Assembly: GCA_963920635.1 (NCBI GenBank)
Contig: OY987302.1
Coordinates: 32,339,278-32,403,277, forward strand
DNA: 64,000 nucleotides
DNA from: Pseudeuparius sepicola
Lineage: Eukaryota; Arthropoda; Insecta; Coleoptera; Anthribidae
Direction: 5' to 3'
The first letter of the stretch is position 1. Each line of letters starts with the position of its first letter. A program made the position numbers and the translations under genes. The notes below the pieces were generated by a model. It saw only the letters and a program-made list of their open reading frames with translations, was not told the DNA's origin and did not search any database. Positions 12,835 to 53,296 of the stretch are shown here, piece by piece.

Positions 12835-13260
12835 TGTTACGCCGGTGCCAGTGAAAATGACTTTTAAAAAAAAGGAATATTTATTTGTTTTAACTTTGTA
12901 CACTGGTTTGCGATATTAGCTCGTCGAATGGCACACAACGTAACTTGAAGTAGTAGAAACTAACTCGACTAAGAACTAGGAACTGAGAAGAAGAACTAAG
13001 AACTATTAAGAACGGAGAACTATTACGACTGAGAGCCCTCGGTTTCTGGGTTTCGAAGTATTTATAGGGAGACAAAATGCTTAGGCAAGCTTCTGGATCT
13101 TTTCTAGAGAAAAACATCTACAAGTGTAATTTGATTAAGGAACTATTGTCTGCAGAAATCTGAATACAGGAAAGAGTCAGCAGTTCTTAAAAGTGGTAAA
13201 CATGATAAGTAAAGTAATGCGTAGTTTTCGTGAAACGTCAGGAATATTCTGGATGTAACA
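12835..13260 (-). repeat. 3-prime LTR of element A
   Basis: 426 bp, starting TGTTACGC and ending GGATGTAACA (short TGTTAC/GTAACA inverted ends). Nearly identical to 25905-26330. The internal neighbour at 13261-13285 (ATTACTTTCCCCTATTTTAA) is the complement of a purine-rich tract, as expected beside a 3-prime LTR. Confidence 0.9.
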
Positions 13261-13501: not shown

Positions 13502-14404
13502 TTATACAGTGGATTTATTTAAATTTAATTCCATATCTTCCCCTTCCTCGATTGGTTCGCCAATACGAACTGATCTAGGAATAGGCTTCCTCTTAGTAGG
13601 TATAAACCTTTTTAATTTTTGGATTACAGTTTTGTCTGGAGGAAAAGGTGGATAGTCGTCACCTGAGTTTTCGTTCGCAATACCTATCTTTAGTCTAGGT
13701 ATAGGTTTCTTACGACATTTACAAAATATATAAAGAATTATTAAGGATATAATTAATGTAATAGTTAAATAAGTAAACCAAGGATAATATTTGTCAACAA
13801 AGGTTTGATTCATTAAATCGTCGATATCTTTGGAAAATTGATCTAATTCATGTTTGGCCACTTCAAGATTTTGGTAATTAATATTATTCATTTTTAATGG
13901 TTTTAGTTCTGGTAACTTAATGTCTTCAGGTAAATTGTGACAACAATCATATGGTATCCTTATTGGTTCGTAGGGATAGGTAATGTTCGTAGTTTCTTCA
14001 TTTTGAGCTTTTATATAAATGTTTCCTATATAAGCGAAACAATTTTTCTCCATTGTTAAAATTGAGTTTTCTTTTATTACGAGGGAAGTCGTCTTGTCGT
14101 CGCACTTAATGGTCGTTGGTAAGTTTTCGACAGTCACTATTAACCATGTGTTTGTGGTTAAAACGTAGATATTGTATCCTTTCATGTTCACTACTACACT
14201 TTCACAAGTTTGTGGCATCTGGATTTGGAACTTTAAAAGTTGTGCTTCGCAGACAGCGCCATTGTCTATAGGCACGGGCACTAAGTCTTTACACAGTTTC
14301 ATATTTTGTTGCATGTTTTTACAATTTTCATAATTTTGGATTGATATACAGGGTGTATCTTTGATAGGTACAGAAATTTTAACCACGTAATCGGGGACGT
14401 TCAT
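13502..14404 (-). CDS. Element A Env, C-terminal part (F-like)
   Basis: An open frame of 300 codons. It carries regularly spaced cysteines (CISIQNYENC, MKLCKDL, CESV, CDDK, CFAY, CCHNL), a helical region (VAKHELDQFSKDIDDLMNQT), a transmembrane segment at about residues 210-232 (YLTITLIISLIILYIFCKC) and a charged cytoplasmic tail. This is the membrane-anchoring part of the baculovirus F-like envelope protein of errantiviruses. It starts without the fusion-peptide half, which lies at 18989-20122 beyond 4.6 kb of other DNA. The first ~20 residues overlap in homology with the end of the upstream half. Confidence 0.75.
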   Translation of the reverse strand: MNVPDYVVKISVPIKDTPCISIQNYENCKNMQQNMKLCKDLVPVPIDNGAVCEAQLLKFQIQMPQTCESVVVNMKGYNIYVLTTNTWLIVTVENLPTTIKCDDKTTSLVIKENSILTMEKNCFAYIGNIYIKAQNEETTNITYPYEPIRIPYDCCHNLPEDIKLPELKPLKMNNINYQNLEVAKHELDQFSKDIDDLMNQTFVDKYYPWFTYLTITLIISLIILYIFCKCRKKPIPRLKIGIANENSGDDYPPFPPDKTVIQKLKRFIPTKRKPIPRSVRIGEPIEEGEDMELNLNKSTV

Positions 14405-18988: not shown

Positions 18989-20122
18989 TTAATTGCATAG
19001 GCGTAACAAGTGCATTTTTCCCGACCTGCCCTTAAAATTTCTGTACTTATCAAAGTTACACTCTGTATAAAGGCTTGAATCATCATTTCTGCCAATATAT
19101 GGTTTATTCGAACTGGGAAATAGAGTATGAACTAAATGCGTTCTTTGGTCTTTAATTGTTATCGGATAGATACGAAAGATTGTATAAGTTTGAGGTTCAA
19201 CAAGTGGTATTTCTATTGCAAAAACTAAATTTCTTTCAGTTTCAAATGCCTTTAATTCAGAGATATCGAGATAATATCCTATAGTTTCTAGTTGTACTGT
19301 AAAAGGCAATTGATTTCTACTCAAATTTTCAGAAATTCGTTTTAGTTCGCTGTGAAGGTCCATAGGAGAAATTATTGAAGTATGTGTTTAGTCTAGCAAA
19401 AGTAATTGAATTTAGCATGTCACTTAAAGACGTTTCGATAAAAGAGTATGATTCCATCAGTTGCTCAGCAATCTCCAATATTTGTAATTTAGCATCATAA
19501 AATTTTAGGTTATCAGTAATATCGTAAATAGACTCTTCAATTTGTTTTATATCATCATTAAATGTTTCTTCATCGACTTGTAATTTTCGTAAGGTTTCAT
19601 TGAAATTTTTAATAACTGAAGTTGTAACCGAGATTTGTTTTTTCATAAGATTTTCTAGTTCGTGTTCGTCTCTAGCTAATTTATTGATACAATTATTATA
19701 GTATTCACCATCAGAAGAATCAAGATTTCCGGTTATAAATTTAAAAATTGAACCTATGCCATTAATTAAACCACGTTTCGATCTTTTACTAACATCGTAT
19801 TTTAAATCTCTAAATTTTGAATTAATGTCATTCGAAATTTGGTGAAGTAAGCTTAAATGAGTTTTTATTTCTGTTCTGAATCTTTCCATACGTGGATTCG
19901 GGGTATATAAAAAGTTATCGAGGTCTATTAAAATTTGTTCGTTATAAAAGTAAGCATTTTTAAGAGAGTATATACCAAAATAGTCCACTTATCATTAGAA
20001 ATTTTTACATTAGAAGTTTGGTGAAAATAAAGCCCTACAGTGTTATAAATCGTTTTAAGAGAGTATTGTGTCGGATTTTCTGCATATTCTGCTGAGATGA
20101 GTGTACCAATGCCGAGGTACAT
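18989..20122 (-). pseudogene. Element A Env, fusion-peptide half
   Basis: N-terminal half of an F-like envelope protein. After a short leader (MYLGIGTLISAEY) and one frameshift near 19985, the frame shows a furin-type RSKR site directly followed by the GLINGIGSIFKFITG fusion-peptide-like segment. A long helical region with LMKKQISVTTSVIKNFN comes next, then a conserved YTIFRIYPI segment. A second frameshift falls near 19360. This is the fusogen of infectious errantiviruses in family terms; here it is broken and separated from its membrane anchor. Confidence 0.8.
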
Positions 20123-20167: not shown

Positions 20168-21449
20168 CTAATCATCTTCTGAACCTACTGACCTAGTTTC
20201 TTCTATATTGTCCGTTTCATTTAAGTTTGTTTGATTCAAATTTTGTTCTTTGCTATAGCATTCTTTCAACATATCAAAATTAACTTTAGTTGTTTGATCA
20301 GTTATTGGATTATAGATTAGACAAGAATTTTTATAAATTTCTCTAACTTCGTAAGGTCCATTAAACTTGTTTGCTAATTTGTTTTTGATTTGTGATTCCT
20401 TTAACCAGACTTTATCTCCTCTCTTAAATTCATGTTGGGTTGGATTCTGTTTGTCAAATCTTCCTTTGGCTTTTTGTTTTCTTAGATCAGTACGATTTCT
20501 AGCAATTTCATAATAATGTTTTACTTTGCCATTTAGATCTCTGACGTATTTTGAAATTAATTGTTCTTCGTTATATAACGTTTCGGCGGGGCGACTAGCC
20601 GTATGTCCAAAAACTAGTTCATATGGTGAATAACCTGTTGTATGATTGATAGAATTATTATAACAAATACAAGCATAAGGTAATAATTGTAAAGGGTGTT
20701 CTCCAGGTTGTTCTAAAGTCATTGTTCTTATCATTTCAAGTAATGTCGCGTGAAATCTTTCTAATGAGCCGTTAGATTGAGTGATTGATACTAGAAAATG
20801 TTAATTTAATATTATATAGTGTACATAAATCTTTCATTAATTGATTATTAAATTCTCGTCCGCTATCACAATGAATTCTTAAGGGTGTACCGTAATGTTG
20901 AAAATATGAAATTAAGACGTTAACTACATTTTTTGCAGTTTTATTCTCAACAGGATATGCTTGTGTAAATTTAGTCAATTCATCGCGAACTGTTAGAACT
21001 AAATGTCTTGTTGGAATTTCTAAAATGTCTAAATTTATTCGTTCAAAAGGGGCTCGAGGTGTTTCAGTAATGACCAAAGGATTTGATAAGTTTTTCCTGC
21101 AAATTTTAGCTTTTTGGCATATCTCACATTGTTTTATAAAATTTTCGACGTCTTTTGTCAGTCCGGACCAATTATATTTTTGTCTTATTCGTCTGATTGT
21201 TTCATTAATTCCTCTGTGAAAATTTGATTTGCCTGAATGGTAATTATCTATCACTATTGGGATTTGGTCTGCATCCGGGATTTCGACAATATTTTGGCAA
21301 ATTATAAACCTCATTTCTTTATCTGAATAAATAAAACTTAACATCTCTAATATTGGGAAATCTGTATTATTTTCAACATAATAAGTTTTAGAGCTGGTTA
21401 GAACATCTTTATCTCTATCCAAAGAAACGAAAAGTAATTGTGTAGCCAT
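20168..21449 (-). pseudogene. Element A integrase
   Basis: Gypsy-type integrase in two frames. The zinc-binding H..H..C..C end is seen as HRGINETIRRI then QCEICQKAK. The catalytic core shows first Asp in NLDILEIPTRH, second Asp in IHCDSGREF and Glu in GSLERFHATL, reached after a frameshift near 20770. The C-terminal part has NKFNGPYEVREIYKN and ends at 20168 with an acidic tail (NETDNIEETRSVGSEDD). Unlike element B, no macrodomain follows; env begins directly afterwards. Confidence 0.85.
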
Positions 21450-22015
21450 TTCGAGATTATAAGGTAAAACAATAATATAATATGTTCTTCTTGAGCTTGA
21501 GTCTTGTATAAGTTCATAAATCTAGCAAATTCTTTGTCTAGTTCATTTATATCTTCATCAGTTAATTCAGGTTCTTTAGAGGTTGAAGGTTCATTACTTA
21601 GATTAGTATGAAAAATTACAGCTTCTTCAATAGGGTTGATTTTGATTCTTGATAATGCATCAGCGTTTTTGTTTATTTTGCCTGGTTTATAAGTTATTTC
21701 GTAATTATAGTCTTCTAATTTTAAACGCCACCTTGCAAGTCTACTTCCTGGGTCTTTGATTGAAAAAACTAATTTAAAACTCCTACCATAAATGTAAGGA
21801 TGAAAGGTCTTACAGGCCCATACAATTGAGAGTAATTCTTTTTCTACTACGCTATATTTTGATTCAGCTGTATTTAGTGTCCTTGATGCGTATGCTATTG
21901 GAAGATCTTTACCGATTGGTCCTTGCGATTGCGAAGGCAGATGCATCAGTAGTTATTACAAAAGGTTCTTCAAAATCTGGGTACTTCAAAATTGGACTGG
22001 TAGTTAAAGCTATTT
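21398..22015 (-). pseudogene. Element A RNase H, TDH motif missing
   Basis: RNase H domain following [43 protein letters not shown] and KNADALSRIK are present. The usual TDHKPL.WLF stretch between FK and FSIKDP is absent, which removes one active-site Asp. The early LTTDA part around 21950 is frameshifted. The same stretch is missing in element B but present in element C. Confidence 0.75.
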
Positions 22016-22952
22016 TTAATTGATTAAAAGCATTTTCACAATCATCATTAAAATTAAATGGAACATCTTTTTTAGTAGGGTAGTTAATGGTTTTGTTATT
22101 TTCGCAAAATTTGGGATAAATCTTCTGTAATATCCTGCCAAGCCTAGAAATGATTTAATATCTTTCGGATTCTTGGGAGTAGGAAATTTAATTACAGCTT
22201 CTACTTTTTCGGGATTTGGTTTTACTCCGTCTTTAGTAATAATATGACCAAGGTAAGCTACTTCTTTTCTAAGGAATTCACACTTATCAGGTTGAATTTT
22301 CAAATTTGAATTTCTTAATCGATCGAAGACTTCAGAAAGTCGGGAAACGTGTTCTTCTATAGATTGAGAGTAAATAATTATGTCGTCCATATATACAAGA
22401 CATCGCTCATTCTGAATACCTGCAAGTATGTTATCCATAACACGCTGAAAAGTACTGGGCGCATTTTTTAACCCAAATGGCATCCTTAAAAATTCCCAAT
22501 GTCCGTTTTCTACCGAAAATGCAGTTTTTTTCCATATCTTTTTGATCAATTTCAATTTGATGAAATCCTGACGCTAAATCAAGAGTAGTAAAATATTGAC
22601 ATTTTCCTAGCTGATATAACAAGTCTGTTATGTTTGGTAAGGGATATTTATCATCGACTGTTACTTCGTTAAGCTTTCTGTAATCTATTACCACACGCCA
22701 CTTTTGTTTTCCACTGGCATCTAGTTTTTTGGGCACCACCTAGACTGGTGAGCTCCAAGGTGAAATAGAAGGTTGTATAATTCCTTGTTCCGACATCTTT
22801 GCTATTTGTGACTTTACTTCTTGCTTATGTATTTGTGGATATCTGTACGATTTAGTGTATATTGGTTTCGACTCGTTTGTATTTATTGAATGTTTGATTT
22901 TATTTGTAAAAGTTAATTGGTCACCTAGGAAAAATATGTCTGAATATTGCAA
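22016..22952 (-). pseudogene. Element A reverse transcriptase
   Basis: Complete gypsy RT by homology: the SYRYPQIHKQEVKSQIAKM entry, [51 protein letters not shown], the catalytic YMDDII box (about 22385) and [15 protein letters not shown] at the end. A TGG to TAG stop interrupts it at 22740, and a one-base insertion lies in a run of seven T at about 22525. The homopolymer location raises the possibility of a sequencing error. Confidence 0.88.
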
Positions 22953-23379
22953 ACAAAGATCAGCAATAATTTCTCGTTCTTCCTCGTTTAAGTGTTTTAA
23001 GCGTAAATTATCTGTAATAGCGACTTGCCTATCAAATGAAGAAATATTAAAAATTTGAACTGTTCTTGTTGTTTTAGAAATTTATCTAGTTCTGCTTCAA
23101 AATTAAAATTAGGATTATTTGGAAATTTTTCTTTAAATGTAGCTTTATTTTTGATGGTAATTTTATTTCCTTGAACTATTCTTTCTTTATTGATTTCAGG
23201 TTGTTCTTTGAATTTTATTTCCCTAACGATTTCCTTCTAACGAAATTTGTATGTTTTTAGGTTTAATATAAGGTTCACATCTTACATTTCTTTTTCTATT
23301 TATATCAGAAATTTTAGAAGAGATTGGAAAAATTTGTATTTGTGATTCTTTAAAATTTTGGCTTATTTTTGAAATTTCC
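22953..23379 (-). pseudogene. Element A Pol linker between macrodomain and RT
   Basis: Minus-strand frames give a Lys/Ile/Asn-rich spacer and then NLRLKHLNEEEREIIADLCL, the conserved approach to the gypsy RT. One frameshift near 23070. No additional domain recognised. Confidence 0.5.
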
Positions 23380-23781
23380 AGTTTGCAAATAATTATTTCA
23401 ATTTCTATATTGCGAAAAACAAAATGTATCATTCTTTTGACTTTGGACCATTTTAGTTTATCAATTCCACAAGTGTTTGACATTATTTCTTATAATATGT
23501 TCCCGTAATTCCTTTAAACAAACCCATAAAGAACTATACGTTGGTTTCTGCCAAAAATATCTTTTTGTTACTAGATAATACACAAAACTATTTGGATTTT
23601 TAAGAATTGCAATTTGTCCTACATTATTAACTTGCTTCTTTAAATACTTAATTTGATTATATTTTTCTTTAAAACTAGCCGCGATTCCTGCGCTCATTTT
23701 TAAGTCTAAAGAAACACAATGCGCTAGCGAATATCTTTCTGGCATATCAAATAAATTATTGTTAACTTCAATTATCTTAGG
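23380..23781 (-). CDS. TARG1/OARD1-like macrodomain in element A Pol
   Basis: In frame with the protease ORF (residue ~232 onward) lies a macrodomain of the TARG1/OARD1 (ALC1-like) class. It shows NNLFDMPERYSLAHCVS, the DLKMSAGIAASFKEKY loop, VYYLVTKRYFWQKPTY and, after one frameshift near 23470, CGIDKLKWSKV. In cellular TARG1 enzymes the TK lysine and the CG.D aspartate form the active site that hydrolyses ADP-ribose esters on proteins or nucleic acid; both residues are retained here. It occupies the protease-RT linker, preceded by acidic repeats. Function in the retroelement is inference: removal of ADP-ribose laid down by host PARPs on element proteins or nucleic acid is one possibility. 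Confidence 0.85.
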
Positions 23782-24480
23782 ACAATCTAAACTTTTACTT
23801 TTCTTAAATTCTTTATACTCATTATCATTTTTTATATCAATAATACAAAACTTAGTAACATTATCAGCAATAAAAACATCATCGTCATCAATATCTTCAT
23901 AGACTTTATTTTCATCAACTTTACTAACTTCATAATTATTATATTCATCTACTCTCATAGTAGGATAAGTATTATTTTCATCTACCTTTTCAGTAGGATC
24001 AACATAAATCTCAGAAATACTTACTTCGTCTTCATCTACTTTATTAGTAGGATCATTGTAATTATTTTCATTATATGATTCTATTTCTAATTCCTTAAAA
24101 TTAACTACCTTATTAGACTCGTTATTATTTAAAATTGTTGTAATAAATTCTCCATTATTATCTATCTGAACTAAGGCATTAGGTAAATAAACATTTTCAA
24201 CATTTTTTGCTGAAACAATAGCATCAGTATTTTTATGTTTTAAAGTTCTAAGCTTACATATCTTTTCTACTCGAGGTTCTATCGAAATTATATTTTCTAC
24301 ATTTTGTGGATAATCATCTAAGATACAATGCAGTGATACTATTCCTTCATAAGTTATTAATGGAGTTATAACTTTATTTAAATGCCGAATTACATGAGGT
24401 TTTATTAATGAAATAGACGCACCAGTATCAATTAAAGTAGTATAGTAAAGTTCTTCGTTTGGTTCGCAATGCAAGTTTAC
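23782..24480 (-). CDS. Element A protease and acidic repeat linker
   Basis: The frame opens with the retroviral-type aspartic protease motif LIDTGASISLI (DTGA active site, about residue 16). It continues through the usual gypsy spacer (RTLKHKNTDAIVSAKNVENV ... TILNNNESN). It then runs into imperfect repeats of the form D-P-T-x-K-V-D-E-(N/D) (about residues 140-200) and a strongly acidic patch (IDDDDVF) before the macrodomain. The protease would cleave Gag-Pol during particle maturation. The repeat linker is not a family feature I know and may simply tether the extra domain. Confidence 0.8.
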
Positions 24481-25639
24481 TTTGTATACAGGTTCTATTT
24501 TGAGGACATATTCAGATTCCTCATTTGTGAAGTAATGTCCGAGGCTGGTTGAGTAAAATTTACTTTAGGGGAAGAATTTGGAGTTATAGAGGGTGCTCTC
24601 GAAGTTGAAGGAGTTGGATTTGAGTTCCAAGGGAAAGTTGGTTTTGCATTTATGTGATGAGTTCTAGGAGAGTTATTTTGAAAATTAGGTCTAGAATTTT
24701 GTTGGAGAAATTGCCTCTGATTTGAAAAATTTTGGAAATTGTTACGAGGGAAACTAGAGATGAAAAATTATTCGGTCTATTAAAATTATTATTTGGTCGA
24801 GAAAAATTATTTGATCTAGAGAAATTATTATTATTATTTCTTTGGAAATTAGAACTGTATCTTTCATTTTGATTTCCATAAGAATTTTGGAAATGATTAC
24901 TGGGTGCATTATGTCTTTTATTTTTACTTCTGCATTCTTGAATGTTATGCCCTTGCTTTTTGCAATATGAACAAAATTTTGGTTTAGAAAATTTTTTATT
25001 TTGATTATTAAAGGTATTATTTGCATAATTTTGTCTTGGAAGTCTTTGATTTTCGAAATATGTAAGTTGAAGTTCTCTTTTTATTCGGTTTACAGCTTCT
25101 AGTACGGTATCTGGATTACTTGCTCTAATTATTTGACCAATTTTTGGTTCAAGACCTGTTAAAAGAGTATTGAGAGTCATATCTTCGATAAGTTGGGATT
25201 GCGCTTGCTTTTGAGCATTAGTTAAATTTTGTTTAGTAATTGCGCTATGCATTCTAGAATTTACATTTATTAGACGATTGCAGAACGTTAATGGATTTTC
25301 ATTTGGCATTTGACGTAATCTCTGAAGGTCTGAAATCAAAGCATTTAAATCTCGCGGATCTCCGAAATGTGTTTGTAATAAATTATTAATATCATCCCAC
25401 TTGTCTAAATCTCTACTATTAATAAGTTGCGCTGCCTTTCCACGGAGTTGATTTTTAATTCTAATTGTTACAAATAATTTCTTTTCCTCATCGCATATTT
25501 GGAATGCGGTTTTACATGCGCTAATAAATATGTTTAAGTATATTGGATCTCCGTCGTATTCTGGTATTAAAGCGAAAATGTCTCTTAAATTGTATTGTGG
25601 TTCGTTAGTTCCTACTACCTCTTCTTGTTCGTTAACCAT
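24481..25639 (-). CDS. Element A Gag
   Basis: Starts at ATG 25639 (VNEQEEVVGTNEPQYNLRD). The capsid-like region shows IPEYDGDPIYLNIFISACK, IKNQLRGKAAQLI and LQTHFGDPRDLNALISDLQ, typical of errantivirus Gag. A CCHC zinc knuckle (CSYCKKQGHNIQEC, about residue 225 of this start) and an Asn/Phe/Arg-rich tail follow. The frame changes near 24750 and then runs to the protease. It forms the particle core and binds RNA. It sits ~265 bp downstream of the LTR. Confidence 0.85.
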
Positions 25640-25883
25640 TTTGAAAAAATGATGATTCGAAATAAATAAAATAAACAAATACACAAAAATAAACAATGCA
25701 ACATAAAATAAAAGTTTTAAAAGTCAAAATTGCCTCTCACAAAATCTGTAGTTTCATCTGTGTTGCTCAGGAACTCGTTGCTTCAGGAACTCGTTGCTCA
25801 GGAACTCGTTGCTCAGGAACTGTAATATCTTCGAAGTGTAGATTGGGATCCACTGGGTGTCTTCTTAACCTCTCTTCTAGTGG

Positions 25884-25904: not shown

Positions 25905-26330
25905 TGTTACGCAGGTGCCAGTGAAAATGACTTTTTAAAAAAAGGAATATTTATTTGTTTTAACTTTGTACACTGGTTTGCGATATTAGCTCGTCGAATG
26001 GCACACAACGTAACTTGAAGTAGTAGAAACTAACTCGACTAAGAACTAGGAACTGAGAAGAAGAACTAAGAACTATTAAGAACGGAGAACTATTACGACT
26101 GAGAGCCCTCGGTTTCTGGGTTTCGAAGTATTTATAGGGAGACAAAATGCTTAGGCAAGCTTCTGGATCTTTTCTAGAGAAAAACATCTACAAGTGTAAT
26201 TTGATTAAGGAACTATTGTCTGCAGAAATCTGAATACAGGAAAGAGTCAGCAGTTCTTAAAAGTGGTAAACATGATAAGTAAAGTAATGCGTAGTTTTCG
26301 TGAAACGTCAGGAATATTCTGGATGTAACA
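25905..26330 (-). repeat. 5-prime LTR of element A
   Basis: 426 bp, TGTTACGC to GGATGTAACA, two differences from 12835-13260 by eye. It would carry promoter and polyadenylation signals. Followed by the TGTA duplication and then immediately by the LTR of element B. Confidence 0.9.
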
Positions 26331-26334: not shown

Positions 26335-26764
26335 TGTTACGGCGACGTGAAGACGAAGACTTTTAAAAAAAACTTTTATTTCGATAACGCGAGTTACAGA
26401 GTTTTTACTTAGACTACAGACAAGACTAGAATGACACACTCTTACTTGCTAGGCCTATTTATACAGATCTGTTATGCTGAGCTGTTGTGGTTCTCATGGG
26501 AAAAGAATATTTATTATATTAAGAATGTTATTATATAAAGAGAAGATCAAATTCTGCAATTCTTGCAATAAGCAAGTTTTAACAATACTCAAAACGAATA
26601 TGATATGTTCTAGTAATCATTCTAGAACAATATACAATGGAAAATGATATCTTTATAGTCAGCATCTTGAACAATAGTGAATGAGAACATAATATCCAAC
26701 AGTAAACAGAATCAAGGGTAAAACAAGGTTATGATTAAGGTGATGCTTGAGGTCGGATATAACA
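26335..26764 (-). repeat. 3-prime LTR of element B
   Basis: About 430 bp, TGTTACGGCGACGTGAAGAC to GAGGTCGGATATAACA, inverted ends TGTTA/TAACA. Close to 52896-53296 apart from several small indels (for example around 26505-26540). The adjacent CCTTCCCCCTTATG is the complement of a polypurine tract. Confidence 0.88.
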
Positions 26765-26869: not shown

Positions 26870-27157
26870 AGAATTTAGTTCAATTTCTTCTTCTTCGCGG
26901 GGTTCGTCCAATCTATAAGAAGGTTTTCTTTTGACAGCAACAAATTTTCTTAAATTTTGAAAAACGTGATTTCGAGTTCTAGGTGGTTATGGAGGATCGT
27001 CTCCGTTATTAGTAGTAATAATGCCTATTTTAATGTATCTGGACTTTTTACATTTGAAATAAAAATAAACAATAATTAAATGTATGATTAAAGCAATAGA
27101 TAGATATGTCATTATTGGCGTATACTTATTTACAGTTGGTTCATTAATAATATTATC
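26870..27157 (-). pseudogene. Element B Env, C-terminal part
   Basis: Minus-strand frame gives a transmembrane segment (YLSIALIIHLIIVYFYFKC), then a basic tail ending EEEEIELNSN. This mirrors the Env tail of element A (TLIISLIILYIFCKC ... EEGEDMELNLN). One in-frame stop lies at about 26990. The rest of this env lies beyond the Polinton insertion, from 43682 on. Confidence 0.75.
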
Positions 27158-27163
27158 AAGATC
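27158..27163. repeat. Target site duplication of Polinton, left
   Basis: AAGATC, repeated exactly at 43676-43681. Six-base duplications are the rule for Polinton/Maverick integration. Confidence 0.85.
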
Positions 27164-27268
27164 AGTAGTAAGACAAGGAGAGTTCTAAGCCAAACCTGTC
27201 AGACTTGTCTGGCTTAGAACTCTCATAGGGTTTTGGTGGTGGGAGAGCTCCCCCACTACAAGAATAGC

Positions 27269-27276
27269 TATATAGG
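27269..27276 (+). promoter_or_regulatory. TATA-like box of TIR gene
   Basis: TATATAGG lies 45 bp before the ATG at 27314 and is conserved in the right TIR. It is followed by CAACTAAGAGCATCAGTGCAG, a plausible arthropod initiator region (ATCAGT at about 27298). Confidence 0.5.
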
Positions 27277-27313
27277 TGCGTGTGGTTCAACTAAGAGCAT
27301 CAGTGCAGCAAAC

Positions 27314-27604
27314 ATGTCCTTCTTAAATAATTTAAACAAGAATTTGTTGTTAAAAAATCTGGTGAACGTTCGAGATTTGGAAGTAAATGAAAAATTTGAG
27401 ATTCAGAGTTTTAAGAGAATAAGTACTAAGTTTGGAGAGAAGGTGGTTGTGGAGTTTGCAGACTTCAAGACCATTCTGCCCCAGCGGTTTACGGATGAAC
27501 TAACTCAAGAACGAATTGACAGTTTGAATGGTGACAAAAAAAGGCGCTTTTTAACCAGCTTGGGCCCTGTCGGCGAAACGACTAATATTATTTTTTCTGA
27601 ATGA
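27314..27604 (+). CDS. Small TIR-encoded protein, OB-fold-like (left copy)
   Basis: 96 aa from ATG 27314. The pattern is MSFLNNLNKN, then IQSFKRISTKFGEKVVVEFADFKTILPQRF, then FLTSLGPVGETTNIIFSE. A homologous protein of 108 aa is in the right TIR and a diverged one of 100 aa in element E (55061-55363). The short beta-rich layout with conserved TK/RYGEKV.VEF and LP.RF suggests a single-stranded nucleic-acid-binding OB fold, but this is inference. Two copies per element could mean early, high or end-linked expression. This copy stops 12 residues earlier than the right one because of a deletion. Confidence 0.75.
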   Translation: MSFLNNLNKNLLLKNLVNVRDLEVNEKFEIQSFKRISTKFGEKVVVEFADFKTILPQRFTDELTQERIDSLNGDKKRRFLTSLGPVGETTNIIFSE

Positions 27605-27695
27605 GAGCAACATTATATGAAGGTTTAGAAATGTAAAATTGTGAAAATAAAAATATTATTTGTTTGTGTGTGTTTTACTAATATTTTTGGGGGGC

Positions 27696-27703
27696 TATAA
27701 AAG
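27696..27703 (+). promoter_or_regulatory. TATA box of penton-like gene
   Basis: TATAAAAG, 36 bp before the ATG at 27732. The same octamer precedes the next two capsid-region genes. Confidence 0.6.
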
Positions 27704-27731
27704 TGGTACTTGAGGTTGGAATTCATCAATC

Positions 27732-28442
27732 ATGTCGCTGCTGTTCACCCTACAAGGTTTTACTTCCACACTTTCTATTGACTTTAATATTCCTATACAT
27801 TTAGAACCAGATTTTGAGTATGGTTTGGCACTGCTAGGATTTCACACATATAACAGCATACCCAATATAGATGTTGGTGTCAATAAATTTTATTATATAA
27901 ACGCTGATGGATATCGAAAATGTTTAGTTATTCCCACAGGGTCGTATGAAATTGAAGCCTTAGAAGATTACATAGTTCGAGCTTTAAGAAAAGAGGAACC
28001 TGATCAGAAAAATCCAATTTCAATAAAGGCTAATAATAGTACCTTACAGTGTGAAATTTACAGTGATAAATATACAGTAGATTTTCTACCAACAGACTCT
28101 ATTGGTCATGTGTTAGGGTTTTCTCCTACACGATTAGAGTCTGGACAATTGCATACTTCCGATATATCTGTAAACATCGTGAAGGTCAGAACTATACATA
28201 TAGATTGTAACGTAACATCTGGAGCATACTATAAAAATCAACCAACTCATACGATTTACGAGTTTGCAGTTAGCTGTGATCCTGGTTACGCCATAGACGA
28301 GTCTCCGAAAAATTTGGTGTACATGCCAGTTGCAAAGCGTGAGATTAATAATTTAACGCTAACTATTCTCGATCAGAACTTTCAACCTGTAAATTTTAGA
28401 GGCGAGGAAATAATTGTGCGGTTGGAGTTGAAGCGTGTATGA
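27732..28442 (+). CDS. Penton-like minor capsid protein
   Basis: 236 aa, start ATG 27732 (MSLLFTLQGFTSTLSIDFN). Beta-rich throughout, with FEYGLALLGFHTYNSIPNI, IPTGSYEIEALEDYIVRAL, HVLGFSPTRLESGQLHTSD and a C-terminal LTLTILDQNF...GEEIIVRLELKRV strand pair. Size, beta content and its place just upstream of the major capsid gene fit the single-jelly-roll vertex (penton) protein of Polinton-like elements. Many insect genomes encode homologues of this type beside double-jelly-roll capsid genes. Role as the penton is inferred from order and fold, not from a decisive motif. ORF intact. Confidence 0.65.
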   Translation: MSLLFTLQGFTSTLSIDFNIPIHLEPDFEYGLALLGFHTYNSIPNIDVGVNKFYYINADGYRKCLVIPTGSYEIEALEDYIVRALRKEEPDQKNPISIKANNSTLQCEIYSDKYTVDFLPTDSIGHVLGFSPTRLESGQLHTSDISVNIVKVRTIHIDCNVTSGAYYKNQPTHTIYEFAVSCDPGYAIDESPKNLVYMPVAKREINNLTLTILDQNFQPVNFRGEEIIVRLELKRV

Positions 28443-28491
28443 AAATTTCGCTATAGAGATGGTTTTGGTTTTTGGTGGCAGATATCACCCG

Positions 28492-28499
28492 TATAAAAG
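28492..28499 (+). promoter_or_regulatory. TATA box of major capsid gene
   Basis: TATAAAAG, 106 bp before the capsid ATG at 28598. It is followed at 28500-28597 by an untranslated leader with no competing long ORF. Confidence 0.55.
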
Positions 28500-28597
28500 T
28501 CAATCACAATGCTTTAAAAATTCACTAGTGAGTAAATCATCGAAGAGTGCAGATCGTCTCTCGTTGGAAAATCAGCAATTTTTGAAAGCGCTTGGTT

Positions 28598-29815: not shown

Positions 29816-29828
29816 AACCACATATCTA

Positions 29829-29836
29829 TATAAAAG
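29829..29836 (+). promoter_or_regulatory. TATA box of 29866 gene
   Basis: TATAAAAG, 37 bp before ATG 29866, and only 14 bp after the capsid stop codon. Gives the same distance as for the penton-like gene. Confidence 0.6.
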
Positions 29837-29865
29837 AACATTGTCACATTTCAGTTATAATTAAG

Positions 29866-30291
29866 ATGTTGCTGAGACTGGGTCACGTTATATTATTCCC
29901 ACTAATAAATAATGTGTTCTATATTTACAACCCAGAAGATACTAAGATATCTATTTGCGAGCGGGATAAATGTTTCCCATTTAAGGCGGTAGTTGGAAAA
30001 ATTTCAGTAGCAAGACTATCCAAAAATGCTACTCAATTTAAACTTCATGCAGTATTCCAAAACCATACGACTGTTGAAACTGTGTGGAGGGAGATTCCAC
30101 ATTTCACCACACTCACAATGGACATGCTCAGAGAGCTCCCCACTCAAGATCATCATATAAAAGATCTCGCATTTGTACCACTCATTTACTACATTACTAT
30201 ATGTTCTTCCTTGTTAGTAGCAAAATTATTTATTGAAATAGTAAGAATATTACTGAGTGAGCAATGGAACGTAATTACGAGAGTCTTATAA
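29866..30291 (+). CDS. Small membrane protein, unknown
   Basis: 141 aa, family not recognised. It has a hydrophobic start (MLLRLGHVILFPLINNVF), a central polar domain with a Cys pair (ICERDKCFPF) and a C-terminal hydrophobic helix (FVPLIYYITICSSLLVAKLF, about residues 103-122). That suggests a single-pass membrane protein with the polar domain on one side. It sits between the capsid and IAP-like genes and overlaps the latter by 28 bp. A virion or assembly role is possible. Confidence 0.6.
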   Translation: MLLRLGHVILFPLINNVFYIYNPEDTKISICERDKCFPFKAVVGKISVARLSKNATQFKLHAVFQNHTTVETVWREIPHFTTLTMDMLRELPTQDHHIKDLAFVPLIYYITICSSLLVAKLFIEIVRILLSEQWNVITRVL

Positions 30292-43675: not shown

Positions 43676-43681
43676 AAGATC
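43676..43681. repeat. Target site duplication of Polinton, right
   Basis: AAGATC, identical to 27158-27163. Confidence 0.85.
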
Positions 43682-45600
43682 CTTTACATATTCGTTTAAT
43701 TTATGCTTTGCGGCATTTAAATCGTCATAATTAAATTTATTTAATTAAATTTACAGTTGTAAAGGTTTTAGATCAGGAAATTTTATTTCATTTGGAGTTT
43801 CTTTGCAACATTCAAATGGAATATTAATTGGGTGAAATTTATAGGTTTGATTAGATTTATTTAAATTTTTCGTTTGAACTTTAGTACTTTCGATATAAGC
43901 AATGCAATCAGATTTTAACGTTAAAATTGAAGCTTTGTCTAGCATTATAGTCAAAGGATTTTGATTTTTACACTTAATAGTTATAGGAAATATTTCACTT
44001 AAAATTATTATATTATATTTTATTTTATTATATTTCACTTAAAATTATTAACCTCTCTTGAATCAATTGTACATTGTAACTTTTAATTGAAATTGTGACA
44101 ATGTCGCAAGTATTAGGTAAATGGGTTTTTACCTCTAGCAAAATTGAGCTTCACATCTTGAATAGGAGTTGGATATAAATCTTTACACATTATTAATTCA
44201 AATGCTAGTTCCTTACAATTTTTTATATCATAAAGAATTGCATAGAGAGCTGGGTCATCGCTTTTTGCTACATATTTAGTATCTATATATAGTAGTATAT
44301 AATGGAATAGGATAAATTCTATAAAGAGTATACCATTGAGGTTCTACTAAAGGAATGTATAATATAAAAACAAGCCCATTTTTTGTTTGAAAAACTTTTA
44401 GCTCTATAAGGTCGAGATAAGTTGCAACATTTAGAAGTTGAGGAGTTAAGGGCAAGTTATTTTTGTTTAAAGTCTGAGCGATTATTTGCAAATGATGAAC
44501 CAGGTCTTCAGGAGTTATAACTGGCGTGTCAATAATGCGTAGCTTTGCAAAAGTAATAGAGTTTAGAATGTCATTTAAATTGCTTTTGATAAAGGTATAG
44601 GATTCTAGGAGTCTTTTGGCCATCTCTAGAATTTGTAATTTTGCAGTGTAATAGTTAAAATTATCAGAAATGTTATAAATATAATTTTCAATTTGTTTTA
44701 TGTCATTATTAAAAGTAATTTCATCAATTTGTAATTTGTTAATGGAGTTATTAAAATTTTTGATAACTGACGTAGTAACTAAAATTTGTTTTTTCATTAA
44801 TTTTTCTAATTCGCGTTCATCTCTGTTTATTTTGTCCATACAATCGTTATAATACTGTCCGTCTGAAGCATCTAAATTTCCTGTAATAAATTTCCAAACT
44901 GACCCTAAACCATGAATTAAACCTCTTTTATATCTTCTTACATCAATAGCTAATTCTTCAAATTGAAGCGCAATGTTTTCGGAAAGTTGGTTTAGTAAAG
45001 TGAGATGTGACTTAACTTCGTTTAGAAAGGCGGCCATTCTTACGTCTTTTGGTTGAATTACAAATTGCATATTTTCTAAAATTTTATTATTATTTTCGAA
45101 TGTTGTTTTTAGATATTTTTTGGTTTAGTTTAGTTGGGAAAAGGGTCAAAACGCTATTAAAAACACTATTTCTTCGCCAACGTTTCGATTAATGTATAAT
45201 CTTCATCAGGGCTCTAAAATAAAATACAATCTAGTATATAAAATGAATATAAACTAAAAATAAGAATTTAAGAAGAAAGGTTTTCTGGCACATGATATAA
45301 ATTTATAAATAAAAATAAGACTTACCAGAAATAAGATTGATGATTTTGAATTGTAAGTATATTAACGTTTTAACTGTCTAGTTTTTACTGCCTAGTTTGT
45401 TTCTGTTATGTAAATATTTAGTAAAAAATTTATAATATAATATTTGTATATTCAAAGTCAGTGTCAAAAATATTAGGTATAGGTAAAGGTATAATTAATA
45501 ACATGAAATGTTTTTAGAGATGAAATGACTTTATAAACTAATAAACTCTACTTGCCATTAGAAATTTTGAGTCCAGATTGTTCTTGATAGAACACGCCTA
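43682..45600 (-). pseudogene. Element B Env, N-terminal and middle parts
   Basis: The best frame (45070-44276) shows RRYKRGLIHGLGSVWKFITG (cleavage site plus fusion-peptide-like segment), EKLMKKQILVTTSVIKNFNN and YTLYRIYPIP, matching element A. Cysteine-containing parts follow in shifted frames (about 44260-43751, IKNCKEL, ECCKETPN). A ~430-bp foreign stretch (about 45120-45550) separates the N-terminal leader. The C-terminal anchor lies at 26870-27157. Dead env. Confidence 0.75.
45120..45550. mobile_element. Short insert in element B env leader
   Basis: Env homology is interrupted here. The DNA carries CAACGTTTCGATTAATGTATAATCTTCATCAGGGC, a phrase type seen in short insect elements, and an AT-rich remainder. 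Borders are uncertain and no TIR was found. Confidence 0.4.
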
Positions 45601-45630: not shown

Positions 45631-46047
45631 TTATTTTAATATCAGTATTTTTGAAAATATAATATATGTAACTGTGTCCCAATCTAATTTATCTAATCCA
45701 CAGGCTAACTTGGGGATAGCTATAACTTTATCCTTTTCATCAGTACTCTCGAGGCAAATTGCTCGTAATTCCTTTAAACAATTAAATAAATTAGCATAAG
45801 TTGGTTTATAATAGAAAAATTCTTTAGTTATTAAATAATAAATATTTCTTGTAGGAAGTTGAGGTACTGCTATTTCACCAATTGACTTATTTTGATTTTT
45901 TAGTTCATCTACGTGTCCATATTTATTCTTAGACTCTTTCGCAAATCCTGCATTCATTTCCAGGTCTTTAGATTTAGATACACAGTGAGCTAATAAAATA
46001 TTTTCAGGGGCATCAAATAAATTGCCCAGTTCAATGGAAACGTTATT
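45631..46047 (-). CDS. TARG1/OARD1-like macrodomain fused to element B integrase
   Basis: The last ~138 codons of the integrase frame (residue ~166 onward of the open frame) form a full macrodomain: LGNLFDAPENILLAHCVS, DLEMNAGFAKESKNKYG, IYYLITKEFFYYKPTY, IAIPKLACGLDKLDWDTV. The TK lysine and the CG.D aspartate of TARG1-type ADP-ribosyl hydrolases are both kept. The frame runs unbroken from integrase through the macrodomain, so it would be made as a Pol C-terminal domain directly before env. Element A ends Pol without it and carries its macrodomain in the protease-RT linker. Activity is inferred, not shown. Confidence 0.88.
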   Translation of the reverse strand, partial: NNVSIELGNLFDAPENILLAHCVSKSKDLEMNAGFAKESKNKYGHVDELKNQNKSIGEIAVPQLPTRNIYYLITKEFFYYKPTYANLFNCLKELRAICLESTDEKDKVIAIPKLACGLDKLDWDTVTYIIFSKILILK

Positions 46048-47340
46048 ATTTTCAATAGGGATTTTTCTATCTAGAGTATAAAAGAATTCTTTAACAGTTA
46101 GTTCTTCTTCTTCCAATTCGTGACATTTCTTAAGCATATCAAAATTCATTTTTGTAGTTTGATTAGTAATTGGGTTATGTAGTAAAGCTGAATTCGTATA
46201 GATTTCCTGAATTTTATAGGGTCCATTAAATTTGTTAGCTAGTTTATTTTTTATTTGGGACTCCTTGTCATAGACCTTTTTTTCTACGCGAAATTGTCGC
46301 TGCTCCGCAACGTGTGTATCAAATCGCTGTTTTGCCTTTTGCTTGCGCATATCCGTACGCTTTCTTGCGATCTCATAGTAATGTTTAATTTTATTGTATA
46401 ACTCGCGAACGTATTTAGAGATTAATTCTTGCTGATTATACAAAACTTCTGGAGGTCGAGACGAGGTGTGGCCGAACAGCAATTCATAAGGTGTAAAGCC
46501 CTGTGTTTTATTTATAGAATTATTATGGCTATACAAGCGCAAGGAAGCATTTGAAATTGATGCTCGTTAGGATTTTCTGTACTACATGCACGTATCATTT
46601 CAGTTAAGGTGGCATGAAATCTTTCTAAGGAACCATTTGATTGCGGATGACTAACACTGGAGAAAGTTAATTTTATATTGTATAATTTACAAAGATCGTT
46701 CATTAATTGATTATTAAATTCTTTACCTGCATCGAAATGGATCCTTAAAGGAGTTCCAAAATGTTGAAAATAGAGTAAAAGAGCGTCTACTACAGATCTC
46801 GCTGTTTTAGTAGGAAGTGCATAAGCTTGTGTACATTTCGTCAGTTCGTCTCTTATAGTAAGGATATTATTTTTCACTGGGATTTCTAGGATGTCAATAT
46901 TTATTCTTTCGAAAGGAGTTTTGGGAGTTTCAGTAATGACTAAGGGACTGTCCAAATTTTGCCTAAAAATTTTTGTCTTTTGGCAGATTTCACACTGCCG
47001 AATAAATGTTTCAACGTCTTTAGTTAGTCCTGTCCAATTATATTTTTGTTTAATACGTAATAGTTTCGTTTATTCCTCGATGTAAGTTTGTCATGCCTGA
47101 ATGAAATTGATCTATTATTATTGGTATTTGGTCTTCGTCTGGTATAGTCGCAATGTTCTGACAAATTGTTAATTGGAAATTTTTATCTGAGAACAAAAAA
47201 TTAAAAATTTCTAAAATTGGAAAGTCTGGATTGTTTTCAATATAATAAGTTTTGTTTTCTTCGAATATATCTTTACTGTAATAAAGAGATATGAAGAGTA
47301 CTTGTATTGCAGTTTCAAAATTAAAAGGAACAGGAATTAT
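46048..47340 (-). pseudogene. Element B integrase
   Basis: Gypsy-type integrase in two or three frames. Zinc-binding end about 47085-46985, core with NIDILEIPVKN (first Asp), IHFDAGKEFNN (second Asp), GSLERFHATL (Glu), then GFTPYELLFGHTSSRPPEVL and NKFNGPYKIQEIYTN. Frameshifts fall near 47065 and 46540. The C-terminal part is in frame with the macrodomain. Confidence 0.82.
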
Positions 47341-47399
47341 ATAATATTTCTTTTAGCTACAGTTTGACTAGAAAGAACATTTGCTTTATTATAGTTAAA

Positions 47400-47899: not shown

Positions 47900-49723
47900 C
47901 AAAATGGTTATCTTTGAACTTTTTGGTATTTAAATAAAATAACACATTTTCCTATTTACAATATATTTACAAGTTGAAATTGTACATAAAAATGGTTACA
48001 ATAAAGTTGGTAAACTTAGTAGTTAAATTTGATTACTTATAATTTATAATTTGTAAAAAACTGAAAACTGTTTAAGGTTTATACAACATCGGAGATGTTC
48101 TTGAGCTTAATAAAAAAATACAAGTACCACAAAAAGTTCACGTGAGCGTTTAAAGTCCTGTTTACGAGCACTTTGAAAATTTGGACGACTGAGTTCAACA
48201 GAATACCTTAAACGTTCTGGGTCGTTGACACTAGTGAGTCGCCACCGTTGCTCCAAACTTCTTATACCTCGGCTAGACTCGAGACTCAAGTTGGGTCGTG
48301 GACGTACCAAGCTGGGGCTAGACGATGTGCGACCACTGTCAGACCTGTGTCGTAGGATGGTGTGTATGTCCGTACTCAGATGGTTGTTCGCTCACGAACC
48401 AGAGTGCATGTAAAAAAAGACACAGCGAAAGTCTCCGAAAACACAGCAGTCGCAAAATCGATGCGTTTACAATGTTCAGTGTTAAGTTACTTAACAATAG
48501 TTACATAAAAATAAACTATGAAGCAATCTGTACAGATTCGTGACTTAAAGTTTACTTATACTCAACGTTATAATCTCAAGACGGATTACGAGACGTAACT
48601 TTGACTTAATGACCCCTGACTATGAAATAGATTAAAAATTGATAACCAAAATGACCAATTATCTTGACTAAACCTGTCTTATTAATTTACTATACAATAT
48701 TTACAAAATAGAAGGTAACATTAATAAAATGTAAAAAGTTTGGCGACTTCCCCATTCGGTATCAAAACACAAGACGAAAAAATATAACAGCCCGAAAGCT
48801 AGATGACAGAAAAAAGGAACCATAGTAAAATTAACGTGTATCTCGGGCAACTTAAGGGTTCGTTTCACTAGGTCTGTGCTAATAAACAAATTTACAACCA
48901 AATTATGGCCACAGCCTGCAGCGTGAACCCACAAAGAAAAGGCGTAACAGGCCTAGGTGAGAGTAGCTCAAGAAGTAGTCAAAATGACGTTATTAATAAG
49001 AAATTATTAAAAATTTAGCAGCTACTCACCTAGACTATGTTTCCAGAGGTCCTCTCCGTGGCTCCACCTGCAGCAGGTCACTGTTGAACTCGAAAAATGC
49101 GTGGAAATCATCCACTCCCACAGCCTAATGCCACGTGCTCGCAAGACACATGTAAAGAACAGAAAACCTCAACTAATAACACACTTAATAACACACGCTA
49201 TACAAAACCACTTAAGCTGACCATAAAGTGGGAAATTAGGCTTGAACAGCTAAATCTATGTAGAAAAACAATCGGAAATCGCAATTTAAGACGATGATGA
49301 CAGGCCAGGGTGTCAACTGTCAATTCTGCCAAACTTTTACCACTGATATTAGACTAGTAGAAACGTTGAACACACAGAGTGACGTTAGTAGTCAATCGCA
49401 TAACTGAATAAAGTGAATATTGACTGTGATTTACGTCAGACAATGATTACAACAATGTAGTTGTTCTAGTAATACATACCTTAAATTGATGAATGGAATT
49501 TAAACACTTTTGCGACCGGCACATACCCTTTTATAAATGGTTTGTTTAAGTGTTTAAGAACAACAAGGTAGGCAACTTATTATGCATCAGCTTGTATAGG
49601 TGGTTGCAGATATTAGGGCAACATTTTTAAAAATGGAACGTGTAAACGCGGGGTCACGAATGAATTGGAATTAAATAATGCATTTAAACGCTTTAACGGA
49701 AATTAGATAAAATTTTCGTTACA
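47900..49723. mobile_element. 1.8-kb insert in element B RNase H
   Basis: RNase H coding is split between AYFSRTLSTA and KYSVIEKE by unrelated DNA. Its left edge reads TATAACCAAAATGG and its right edge ATTTTCGTTACA; TCTG occurs at both borders (CATTTCTG / ACATCTG). No ORF family recognised. It could be a solo LTR or a DNA element; I cannot decide. Confidence 0.5.
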
Positions 49724-50779
49724 TCTGCTGTACTTAAGGTCCTTGAAAAGTATGCTATGGGAAGATCGTTTCCAATAGGTCCTTGAGAAAGTACCGCGCC
49801 TACAGCAAAAGCGCTCGCATCTGTAGTTAAAACAAATTCTTTTTCAAAATTAGGATGTATTAAAATTGGTGAGGTTATTAACGCATTTTTAAGTTGTTCA
49901 AATGATTCGCGACAATCTTTATCAAAAATAAATGGTACGTCTTTTCTTAAAAGTCGAGTTAAAGGCTTTGTCATTTTTGCAAAATTTTAAATAAACTTCC
50001 TCTAGTACCAGTAAGACCCAAAAATTGTTTGATTTGTTTAGTATTAATAGGTTAAGGAAAATCGATTACAGCTTGTACTTTTTGTGGATTTGGTTTAACC
50101 CCTTCAGGTGTAATAACATGTCCAAAATAAATTACTTCTTTTCGTCAGAATTCAGTAATACGAGAGATATGTTCATTAATAATTGTGGAAGAATAAATAT
50201 TAATGTCGTCCATATAAACTAAACATTTTTCGTTTTGGATCCCCATTAGCATATTATCCATAACCCTCTGAAAAGTTGAGGGCGAATTACAAGGGCCAAA
50301 GGGCATACGTAAATATTCAAAATGAACATTTTCAACGGAAAAAGCAGTTTTCGGAATATCTTCTGGATTCATTTCAATTTGTTGAATCCAAGAAGCCAAA
50401 TCTAAAGTGGTAAAATAATGGCAATTACCCAACTGATCTAATATATCTGAAATATTAGGCAGTGGATACCTGTCATTGACTGTTAATTCATTAATTTTTG
50501 ATAATCAATTACGATTCTCCATTTTTGTTTGCCTGAAGCGTCTAATTTTTTTGGAACGACCCATACTGGGGACGACCATGGTGAAACAGCAGGTCTAATA
50601 ATTATTCCTTGAGAAAGCATTTTATTAATTTGTGTTTTTACTTCTTCCTTGTGAACTTGTGGATATTGATAAGATTTAGTAAAAATTGGCTTAGCGTCGC
50701 CTGTATCAATAGTATGTTTTATTTCATTAGTAAAACTTAGGAAATCTCCGTGAAAATAAAATATATCTTCAAAATTCAA
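49724..50779 (-). pseudogene. Element B reverse transcriptase
   Basis: [74 protein letters not shown] and the catalytic YMDDI box (about 50215), then RNase H start LTTDASAFAVGAVLSQG. Frameshifts near 50480, 50150 and 49980. Conserved parts agree closely with element A. Confidence 0.82.
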
Positions 50780-51167
50780 GTATAAATTAGTAATTAGTTC
50801 CTTTTATTCTTCGTTTAAATGTTCTAACCTTAATAATTCTTTTATTTCCTATATTCTACATTTTGTATTATTGAAATTACAAATAATATTAGTACTATCA
50901 TTCACTTCTCTGATGTAAGGTTCAAATTCAAACTCTTCGAAACAAATATCCCTTGTTATGGCATTAGCGTTTAATATTGTCGTATAAAAATTACCTTCTC
51001 CGTTTATTTTTACTATAGCGTTTGGCACGTATACTTTTTATACTCGTTGTGCGCATAAAATCATTTCTTTATTCGTATAATTATTAGTACGAGACTTGCA
51101 TATTTTTCGCATCGCGGTTCTATAACTCATGTTTTCGTTTTCAAAATTATTTATATCATTCGTATAA

Positions 51168-51199
<32 letters not shown>

Positions 51200-51540
51200 T
51201 CGCTCATAAGCGTTTATATGAAGGCTATCGTATCTTTCGTCAACATTAACTTGTCTTTTATAAACAACTCGATTATTATTATCATTATTATTCGCAAGCT
51301 CATTAAATTCATCTCCCTTGAGTAATTCATGTACTTTATAGTACGTAATTAATTGTTTATTCCTAAAATCCACTACTGCACCTTACCTTTCTAAAAAGTC
51401 AGCGCCTAAAATTCCGTCGAATCCTATATCTAGATCGCAAATATAAACTTTATGGGGAGAAAGAGGACCAGTAAAAGGAACAATACCGCTTCAGTAATAG
51501 GAATTGATTGACCAGAAATACCTTTAATTTGAAAATTTTC
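50780..51540 (-). pseudogene. Element B protease remnant and linker
   Basis: IKGISGQSIPITEAV (about 51540-51490) and an F-G-ILGADFLE-like segment (about 51420-51395) are the C-terminal half of a gypsy protease. The catalytic D-T-G part is not visible. The linker (51373-50860) is Asn-rich, with a ten-Asn run from an ATT microsatellite, and contains KVYVPNAIVKINGEGNFYTT. There is no macrodomain in this linker, in contrast to element A. Confidence 0.65.
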
Positions 51541-52895: not shown

Positions 52896-53296
52896 TGTTA
52901 CGGGCGACGTGAAGACGAAGGCTTTTTTTAAAAACTTTTATTTCGATAACGCGAGTTTTTACTTAGACTACAAACAAGACTAGAACTTACTTGTTAGGCC
53001 TATTTATACAGATCTGTTATGCTGAGCTGTTGTGGTTCTCATGGGAAAAGAATATAATAAAAAACAAAGAGAAGATCAAATTCTGCAATTCTTGCAATAA
53101 GCAAGTTTTAACAATACTCAAAAGGAATATGATATGTTCTAGTAATCATTCTAGAACAATATATACAATGGAAAATGATATCTTTATAGTCAGCATCTTG
53201 AACAACAGTGAATGAGAACATAATATCCAACAGTAAACAGAATCAAGGGTAAAAACAAGGTTATGATCAAGGTTATGCTTGAGGTCGGATATAACA
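52896..53296 (-). repeat. 5-prime LTR of element B
   Basis: About 401 bp, TGTTACGGGCGACGTGAAGA to GGTCGGATATAACA. Differs from 26335-26764 mainly by deletions around 52955-53070. Confidence 0.88.

What the first reader, a model, noticed from the sequence alone, without database searches (positions are those of the whole stretch)
23380..23781. Macrodomain inside the protease-RT linker of an errantivirus-like Pol
Seen: motifs of a TARG1/OARD1-type macrodomain (NLFDMPERYSLAHCVS, MSAGIAASFKEKY, YYLVTKR...KPTY, CGIDKLKW) follow the DTGAS protease in one frame. Known: this class hydrolyses ADP-ribose esters using a Lys and an Asp, both retained. Inference: the retroelement acquired an ADP-ribosylhydrolase, possibly to counter PARP-dependent host responses or to act on ADP-ribosylated nucleic acid. 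Viral macrodomains with such roles exist in RNA viruses; I do not know of a described one in this position in a gypsy Pol.
Basis: partly seen in the sequence, partly recalled or inferred. Interest (0 to 1): 0.88.

Follow-up and report, generated by a model that had tools for sequence, protein, structure and literature searches.

The report
ADP-ribose eraser inside retroelement polyproteins
Several families of virus-like mobile elements in this genome carry, inside their replication polyprotein, a domain related to a cellular enzyme that strips ADP-ribose tags, and related families carry it at three different places, which suggests a movable tool for getting past host ADP-ribose tagging.

The parts
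23464..23793 (-). Element A: N-terminal part of TARG1-class macrodomain, in frame with protease
   Evidence: Lys in YYLVTK
23367..23483 (-). Element A: C-terminal piece of the macrodomain (CGIDKLKW...) in another frame after a lesion
23461..24474 (-). Element A: ORF with protease (DTGAS), acidic linker and macrodomain
   Evidence: weak Asp-protease profile hits below cut-off; same order in sibling copies
24650..25696 (-). Element A: gag (Ty3-capsid-like, CCHC knuckle)
   Evidence: below Pfam cut-offs; 53.6% to a second gag at 53648-54229
22019..22739 (-). Element A: reverse transcriptase in two frames
   Evidence: PF00078 E 5.8e-27 and 5.5e-11
21401..21946 (-). Element A: RNase H
   Evidence: PF17917 E 3.3e-18
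20168..21449 (-). Element A: integrase, two ORFs; no macrodomain hit at its end
   Evidence: PF17921 5.2e-17, PF00665 1.2e-9
18989..19988 (-). Element A: start of env (baculovirus F-like)
   Evidence: PF12259 E 4.5e-7 for 19332-19988
13502..14404 (-). Element A: rest of env, separated by about 4.5 kb that looks like a later insert
   Evidence: 38% to B env, 47% to 26912-27172; no Pfam hit
25905..26330 (-). Element A 5' LTR (TGTTAC...GTAACA), followed by TGTA
   Evidence: 99.5% to the other LTR
12835..13260 (-). Element A 3' LTR, preceded by TGTA
45634..46077 (-). Element B: TARG1-class macrodomain fused in frame to the integrase C-terminus
   Evidence: (PDB TARG1 E 6.8e-26)
45631..46542 (-). 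Element B: 303-aa ORF, integrase C-terminal part plus macrodomain
46108..47352 (-). Element B: integrase
   Evidence: P0114, 57-76% identity in pieces
49693..50779 (-). Element B: RT and RNase H pieces; further RNase H pieces at 47632-47891 beyond a nested insert
50888..51373 (-). Element B: end of protease and PR-RT linker, no macrodomain hit
   Evidence: 42.7% to A residues 63-144
43676..45070 (-). Element B: env (Baculo_F, Gypsy env)
   Evidence: PF12259 E 6.8e-19, PF07253 2.5e-7 for 44279-45070
52896..53296 (-). Element B: 5' LTR; related LTR at 26335-26764 (88.9%) is probably its 3' LTR, parted from it by the Polinton-like insert
   Evidence: assignment inferred

Best explanation
Errantivirus-like gypsy elements in this genome captured a TARG1/OARD1-class macrodomain and carry it as an in-frame enzyme module of Pol. 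Related families hold it at three domain junctions: between protease and RT (A), between RNase H and integrase (D1, D2), and after integrase (B). In A and D the macrodomain with its short leader peptide probably moved as one cassette. Mechanism (inferred): made as part of Pol and so carried with the protease, RT and integrase that handle the element's RNA and cDNA, the domain uses its Lys/Asp pair to remove ADP-ribose that host PARP-like enzymes (or TRPT1) attach to the element's nucleic-acid ends or to its proteins, keeping cDNA and RNA ends usable and blunting an ADP-ribosylation response. Shown: domain, positions, copy number, recency of D, selection, retained residues. Inferred: activity, substrate, purpose.
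Against: No activity was measured; a conserved active site does not prove turnover or substrate. Whether PARPs attack this element's cDNA or RNA is unknown. Window copies are broken (A in the domain itself; B in many places). Many of the dS values are near saturation. B's macrodomain does not group reliably with A/D: joined with A in one tree (96/77, with a long-branch warning), not joined in another, with P0034 in a third (92/74); a single clade is not rejected (p-AU 0.375) but not shown. With B, dN/dS is 0.17-0.51 in 4 of 6 pairs and not computable in 2, 0.41 for window A-B, so constraint there is weaker. B copies other than the window's were not read. The host OARD1 gene, the presumed donor, could not be searched.
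Confidence: 0.6

Rival explanations
1. Reader, not eraser: the macrodomain binds ADP-ribose on chromatin or at DNA breaks and guides integrase or the preintegration complex, as chromodomains do at the integrase C-terminus of chromoviruses.
For: B and P0034 have it at the integrase C-terminus, D before integrase; macrodomains in general bind ADP-ribose (recalled).
Against: The Lys motif is kept in 46 of 50 loci and CG(I/L)D in 42 of 50, which binding alone would not seem to need; A has the domain far from integrase. Insertion sites were not tested for bias.
Confidence: 0.2
2. Separate captures: A/D and B (and P0034) took cellular OARD1 genes independently, rather than one captured cassette moving through Pol.
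For: Tree: A, A2 and D form a clade (99/96) next to beetle protein P0103 (94/70); B pairs with P0034 (92/74). Viruses of several kinds, some named after arthropods, appear among BFVD matches, so repeated capture is plausible.
Against: AU test does not reject one clade of all eight element rows (p 0.375); synonymous difference A-B in the macrodomain (0.56) is lower than in the rest of the elements (0.74; 1% of resamples as low), though excess codon identity is only borderline (P 0.05) and B against D or A2 shows none (pS 0.66-0.81).
Confidence: 0.45
3. Passenger: a host gene fragment that happens to ride in the elements without use.
For: The window's own A copy is broken in the domain and yet has 99.5% identical LTRs.
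Against: Low dN/dS, 138 of 150 and 149 of 150 scored matches without a stop, recurrence at three positions.
Confidence: 0.04
4. The domain serves a conflict with other agents instead, for example removing ADP-ribose put on DNA by DarT-like enzymes of symbionts, and only rides on the element.
For: TARG1 reverses DarT modification (PMC8501950 abstract); DarG is the next structural match.
Against: No such enzyme was looked for; the domain is inside Pol, not free.
Confidence: 0.05

Closest known systems
TARG1/OARD1 (C6orf130) ADP-ribosylhydrolase
   Different: here embedded in a retroelement Pol polyprotein
Macrodomain ORFs in teleost epsilon-like endogenous retroviruses (Basta et al. 2009, seen only as cited in one passage of PMC4977317)
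   Same: macrodomain carried by a reverse-transcribing element
   Different: there additional ORFs of vertebrate ERVs; here an in-frame domain of Pol at three junctions of errantivirus-like elements. Macrodomain class in the fish ERVs not known to me
Captured enzymes in LTR retrotransposons: AlkB m6A demethylase in orchid Ty3/Gypsy (PMC9289625, abstract and section 12) and cytosine methyltransferases (PMC5890265, search listing only)
   Same: cellular enzyme captured by LTR elements, discussed as part of conflict with host control
   Different: different chemistry; AlkB is an additional ORF
Errantiviruses such as gypsy and ZAM
   Same: gag-pol-env, Baculo_F-like env, 4-bp TSD, LTR ends AGTTA..TAACT in D
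   Different: no macrodomain described that I know of (recalled)
Viral macrodomains of alphaviruses and coronaviruses
   Same: macrodomain in a polyprotein of an RNA-genome virus

Membership tests
TARG1/OARD1-class macrodomain | sequence and fold closer to TARG1 than to other macrodomains | tested here: met
TARG1/OARD1-class macrodomain | catalytic Lys (TARG1 Lys84; PMC8501950) in ..TK motif | tested here: met
   A and B in the window; 46 of 50 loci by strict motif
TARG1/OARD1-class macrodomain | catalytic Asp in CG(L/I)D (Asp125, recalled) | tested here: met
   B in frame; 42 of 50 loci; in the window's A only out of frame
TARG1/OARD1-class macrodomain | ADP-ribosylhydrolase activity | not testable with these tools
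   needs an assay
Pfam Macro PF01661 | gathering score | tested here: not met
   A no hit, B 16.5 of 22 bits; P0103, P0050 and P0019 also stay below it; P0034 (28.3) and P0038 (24.2) pass
Errantivirus-like Ty3/gypsy provirus | gag, PR-RT-RH-INT, env in one LTR element with TSD | tested here: met
   A; D: (no PR hit with A's PR at E 1e-4 in D loci)
Errantivirus-like Ty3/gypsy provirus | place in an RT tree among named errantiviruses | not tested
   no tree with named reference RTs was made
Chromovirus-type integrase C-terminal module | chromodomain at integrase C-terminus | tested here: not met
   B ORF: macrodomain there, no Chromo hit at E 1

The most novel reading that the evidence does not exclude
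A TARG1-type ADP-ribosylhydrolase is a movable, exchangeable counter-defence cassette of endogenous retroviruses of the errantivirus kind: it relocates between Pol junctions (PR-RT, RH-INT, INT-end) and is swapped between families (D1 and D2 are 66% identical in the macrodomain but 89-95% in RT, RH and INT), which points to ADP-ribosylation of retroelement nucleic acids or proteins as a host defence.
Probability: 0.37. Interest if true: 0.88.

Novelty: new variant of a known kind. Interest (0 to 1): 0.77.

Why it matters
It would make a concrete, testable case that ADP-ribosylation restricts LTR retroelements in animals, with the elements themselves naming the chemistry. It also shows an enzyme domain that differs in place within Pol between related families, which bears on how Pol tolerates new domains. 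The D1 form without an RT match that keeps macrodomain and integrase in one open frame is a natural experiment on which Pol parts must stay.

Tried and rejected
Chance or host-gene insertion into one copy: rejected by sibling copies. Phage or bacterial origin: 12 phage records match (A 33-42% identical to the five proteins read), but trees put the element domains on the side that holds the named animal OARD1 proteins (100/100; 100/98). One origin for A and B: undecided. Searches without hits: the search for homologous proteins with A alone, IMG/VR scans. Literature: ten searches of the open PMC library showed me no macrodomain in a gypsy Pol; subscription papers, among them Basta et al. 2009, are not held; a term search in PMC12992720 found no 'macro' or 'ADP-ribos', and in PMC8672886 no macrodomain passage. 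One row (macro-INT spacer) was read out of frame and is dropped; one line (A INT C-term) was out of frame. My notebook says 14 of 17 LTR pairs; one search shows 15 of 17. On rechecking I lowered the novel case from 0.40 to 0.37, because a gag piece of D1-D2 is also high in synonymous difference, which weakens the exchange reading.

Full report
What is there. On the minus strand, ORF 24474-23461 carries the protease motif and, after a long acidic linker, a macrodomain. The piece 23793-23464 matches human TARG1/OARD1 with E 1.2e-21; identity 41/103. The last part of the domain, with CGIDKLKW, is in another frame (ORF 23483-23223), and the strand before it is missing, so this copy of the domain is broken. 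The element around it (A) has gag, RT, RNase H, integrase and a baculovirus-F-like env, LTRs 12835-13260 and 25905-26330 that are 99.5% identical, and TGTA on both sides. Its env is in two parts with about 4.5 kb between, probably a later insert.

A second copy in the window. tblastn of the domain against the window found another at 46077-45763. It belongs to a related element, B, and is fused in frame to the integrase C-terminus (ORF 46542-45631). Integrase-only relatives from metagenomes, P0062 and P0114, end close to where B runs on into the macrodomain. B's PR-RT linker gave no macrodomain hit. Protein identity A-B: integrase 62-73%, RT 54% over a gapped stretch and 64-76% over aligned pieces of 50 or more residues, macrodomain 53%, PR-linker 43-44%, gag 41-44% to B's own and 54% to a second gag beside it, env 64%.

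Copies in the genome. With A's domain: 830 candidates, 150 scored, 150 matched; by my count of the listing 42 are 79-100% identical and 108 are 56-64%; 12 of 150 have a stop inside; 53 of 150 lie in open frames of 1000 aa or more. With B's domain: 836 candidates, 150 scored, 150 matched at 91-100%; 1 of 150 has a stop; 48 of 150 lie in open frames of 1480 aa or more, most of these 1498. The tool calls such counts lower bounds. B copies other than the window's could not be fetched, so that their long frame contains integrase is inferred from the window's B and from their likeness to it.

Three positions. I had 30 A-like loci and fetched 20 further places chosen by me from the list, mostly for long frames; they are not a random sample. 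Of the 25 loci printed (5 of the 30, all 20 others): L011, L018, L023 and L031 have PR (in L031 its second piece), macrodomain and RT in one frame, L007 PR, macrodomain and the first RT piece; 16 of 20 have RNase H (in part), macrodomain and integrase in one frame (L036-L049, L054, L055), 9 of these with RT in the same frame and 7 (L036-L042) without an RT match; L050 and L053 are broken D-like copies; L051 and L052 are broken copies with PR-macro-RT order (A2). LTR pairs: 15 of 17 loci examined (15 of 16 D, 0 of 1 A2); 6 of 15 pairs 100% identical, 14 of 15 at least 99%, L049 95% by gaps; ends AGTTA..TAACT and an exact 4-bp TSD at the printed boundary in 12 of 15; length 8.5-8.6 kb (L048 8.1), or 7.6-7.7 kb for the form without RT match.

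Selection. Among six copies of A, A2 and D, 13 of 15 pairs give dN/dS 0.06-0.20 and 2 (A-A2, D1-D2) are not computable; with B, 4 of 6 pairs give 0.17-0.51. Many dS values are near saturation; the least saturated pairs (L036, L050, L053 among themselves, dS 0.48-0.59) give 0.16-0.20. Within families pN/pS is 0.31 (26 A copies), 0.21 (13 D1 copies) and 0.24 (3 D2 copies). These are Nei-Gojobori counts on 113-141 codons between copies.

Movement and exchange. The leader before the macrodomain in A (PR-RT linker) aligns with that in D1 and D2 (RH-INT): score 50, reached by 0 of 3000 and 19 of 3000 shuffles. That the leader came from the RH-INT spacer is only hinted at (shuffle P 0.04 and 0.09; A's own spacer against A's leader shows nothing, 0.87). 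Between D1 (L043) and D2 (L047) the macrodomain is 66% identical with pS 0.80, while RT, RH, INT and an env piece are 89-95% with pS 0.51-0.59; along the DNA from RT to env, identity falls to 65-74% over leader and macrodomain and is 76-93% elsewhere. Between A and A2 the macrodomain is 63%, RT 85-97%, integrase 83%, but a PR piece 49% and pS is high throughout. This suggests exchange of the cassette in D; against it, a gag piece of D1-D2 (90% identical) has pS 0.88, and faster change of the domain is the alternative. D's RT is 66-74% like A's but its integrase only 35-36%, so Pol parts have probably been recombined. In the tree, A, A2 and D form a clade (99/96) with the Zophobas morio protein P0103 next (94/70); B goes with P0034 (92/74). 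P0034 is a metagenomic 237-aa protein with SH3_Tf2-1, Integrase_p58_C and Macro, all above cut-off: an INT-macro fusion in another kind of element. One search had placed A with B (96/77) using the truncated A; one search did not. One capture or several is open.

How it probably works. TARG1 removes ADP-ribose from Glu/Asp, from thymidine in DNA, and from phosphate ends of DNA and RNA; its Lys84 is needed (PMC8501950, PMC6582358; abstracts and passages). PARP1-3 modify phosphates at DNA breaks (PMC6582358 passage). A retroelement makes linear DNA with free ends and has an RNA genome; a Pol-borne eraser would be carried with both. That is inference. BFVD matches include viruses named after or known from arthropods (Kadipiro virus VP8, thrips-associated virga-like viruses, two iridescent viruses, an entomopoxvirus), in line with recurrent use of such domains there.

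Novelty. Macrodomain ORFs in fish ERVs and captured enzymes in other LTR elements are precedents. Not found in ten searches of an open library (listed under tried and rejected): a macrodomain inside a gypsy Pol, or one domain at three Pol junctions of related families.

Noticed in passing
27164-43675: Polinton/Maverick-like element apparently inserted in element B's env: inverted terminal repeats 27164-27601 and 43238-43675 (97.9%), double jelly-roll capsid protein, Pox_A32-type ATPase, rve integrase; chromodomain and adenain-like protease hits below cut-off.
   Followed up: partly
2634-5992: Remnant of a third errantivirus-like element (to A: RT 52%, RNase H 44%, integrase 37-38% in the main pieces); no macrodomain hit there.
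   Followed up: no
L036-L042: Shorter D1 copies (7.6-7.7 kb) without RT match keep macrodomain and integrase in a 1280-1281-aa frame, with LTRs 99-100% identical: a probably non-autonomous form that spread.
   Followed up: partly
L043 and L047 against window A: RT 66-74% but integrase 35-36% identical between D and A: probable recombination within Pol.
   Followed up: partly
53418-54229: Inverted second gag of B type beside B's 5' LTR (92.5% to 51974-52756), so a rearranged or second B copy.
   Followed up: no
phages: AY682195.1, JN638751.1, OQ808965.1, OP172811.1, MF787246.1: Free-standing TARG1-like proteins in Lactobacillus, Bacillus G, Fusobacterium and Lysinibacillus phages.
   Followed up: partly
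P0064, P0066, P0103, P0050, P0057: TARG1-like domains with N- or C-terminal extensions that I did not identify, P0103 from Zophobas morio.
   Followed up: no
23870-24100: Acidic VDEN-type repeats in A's linker before the macrodomain (more of them in L023).
   Followed up: no
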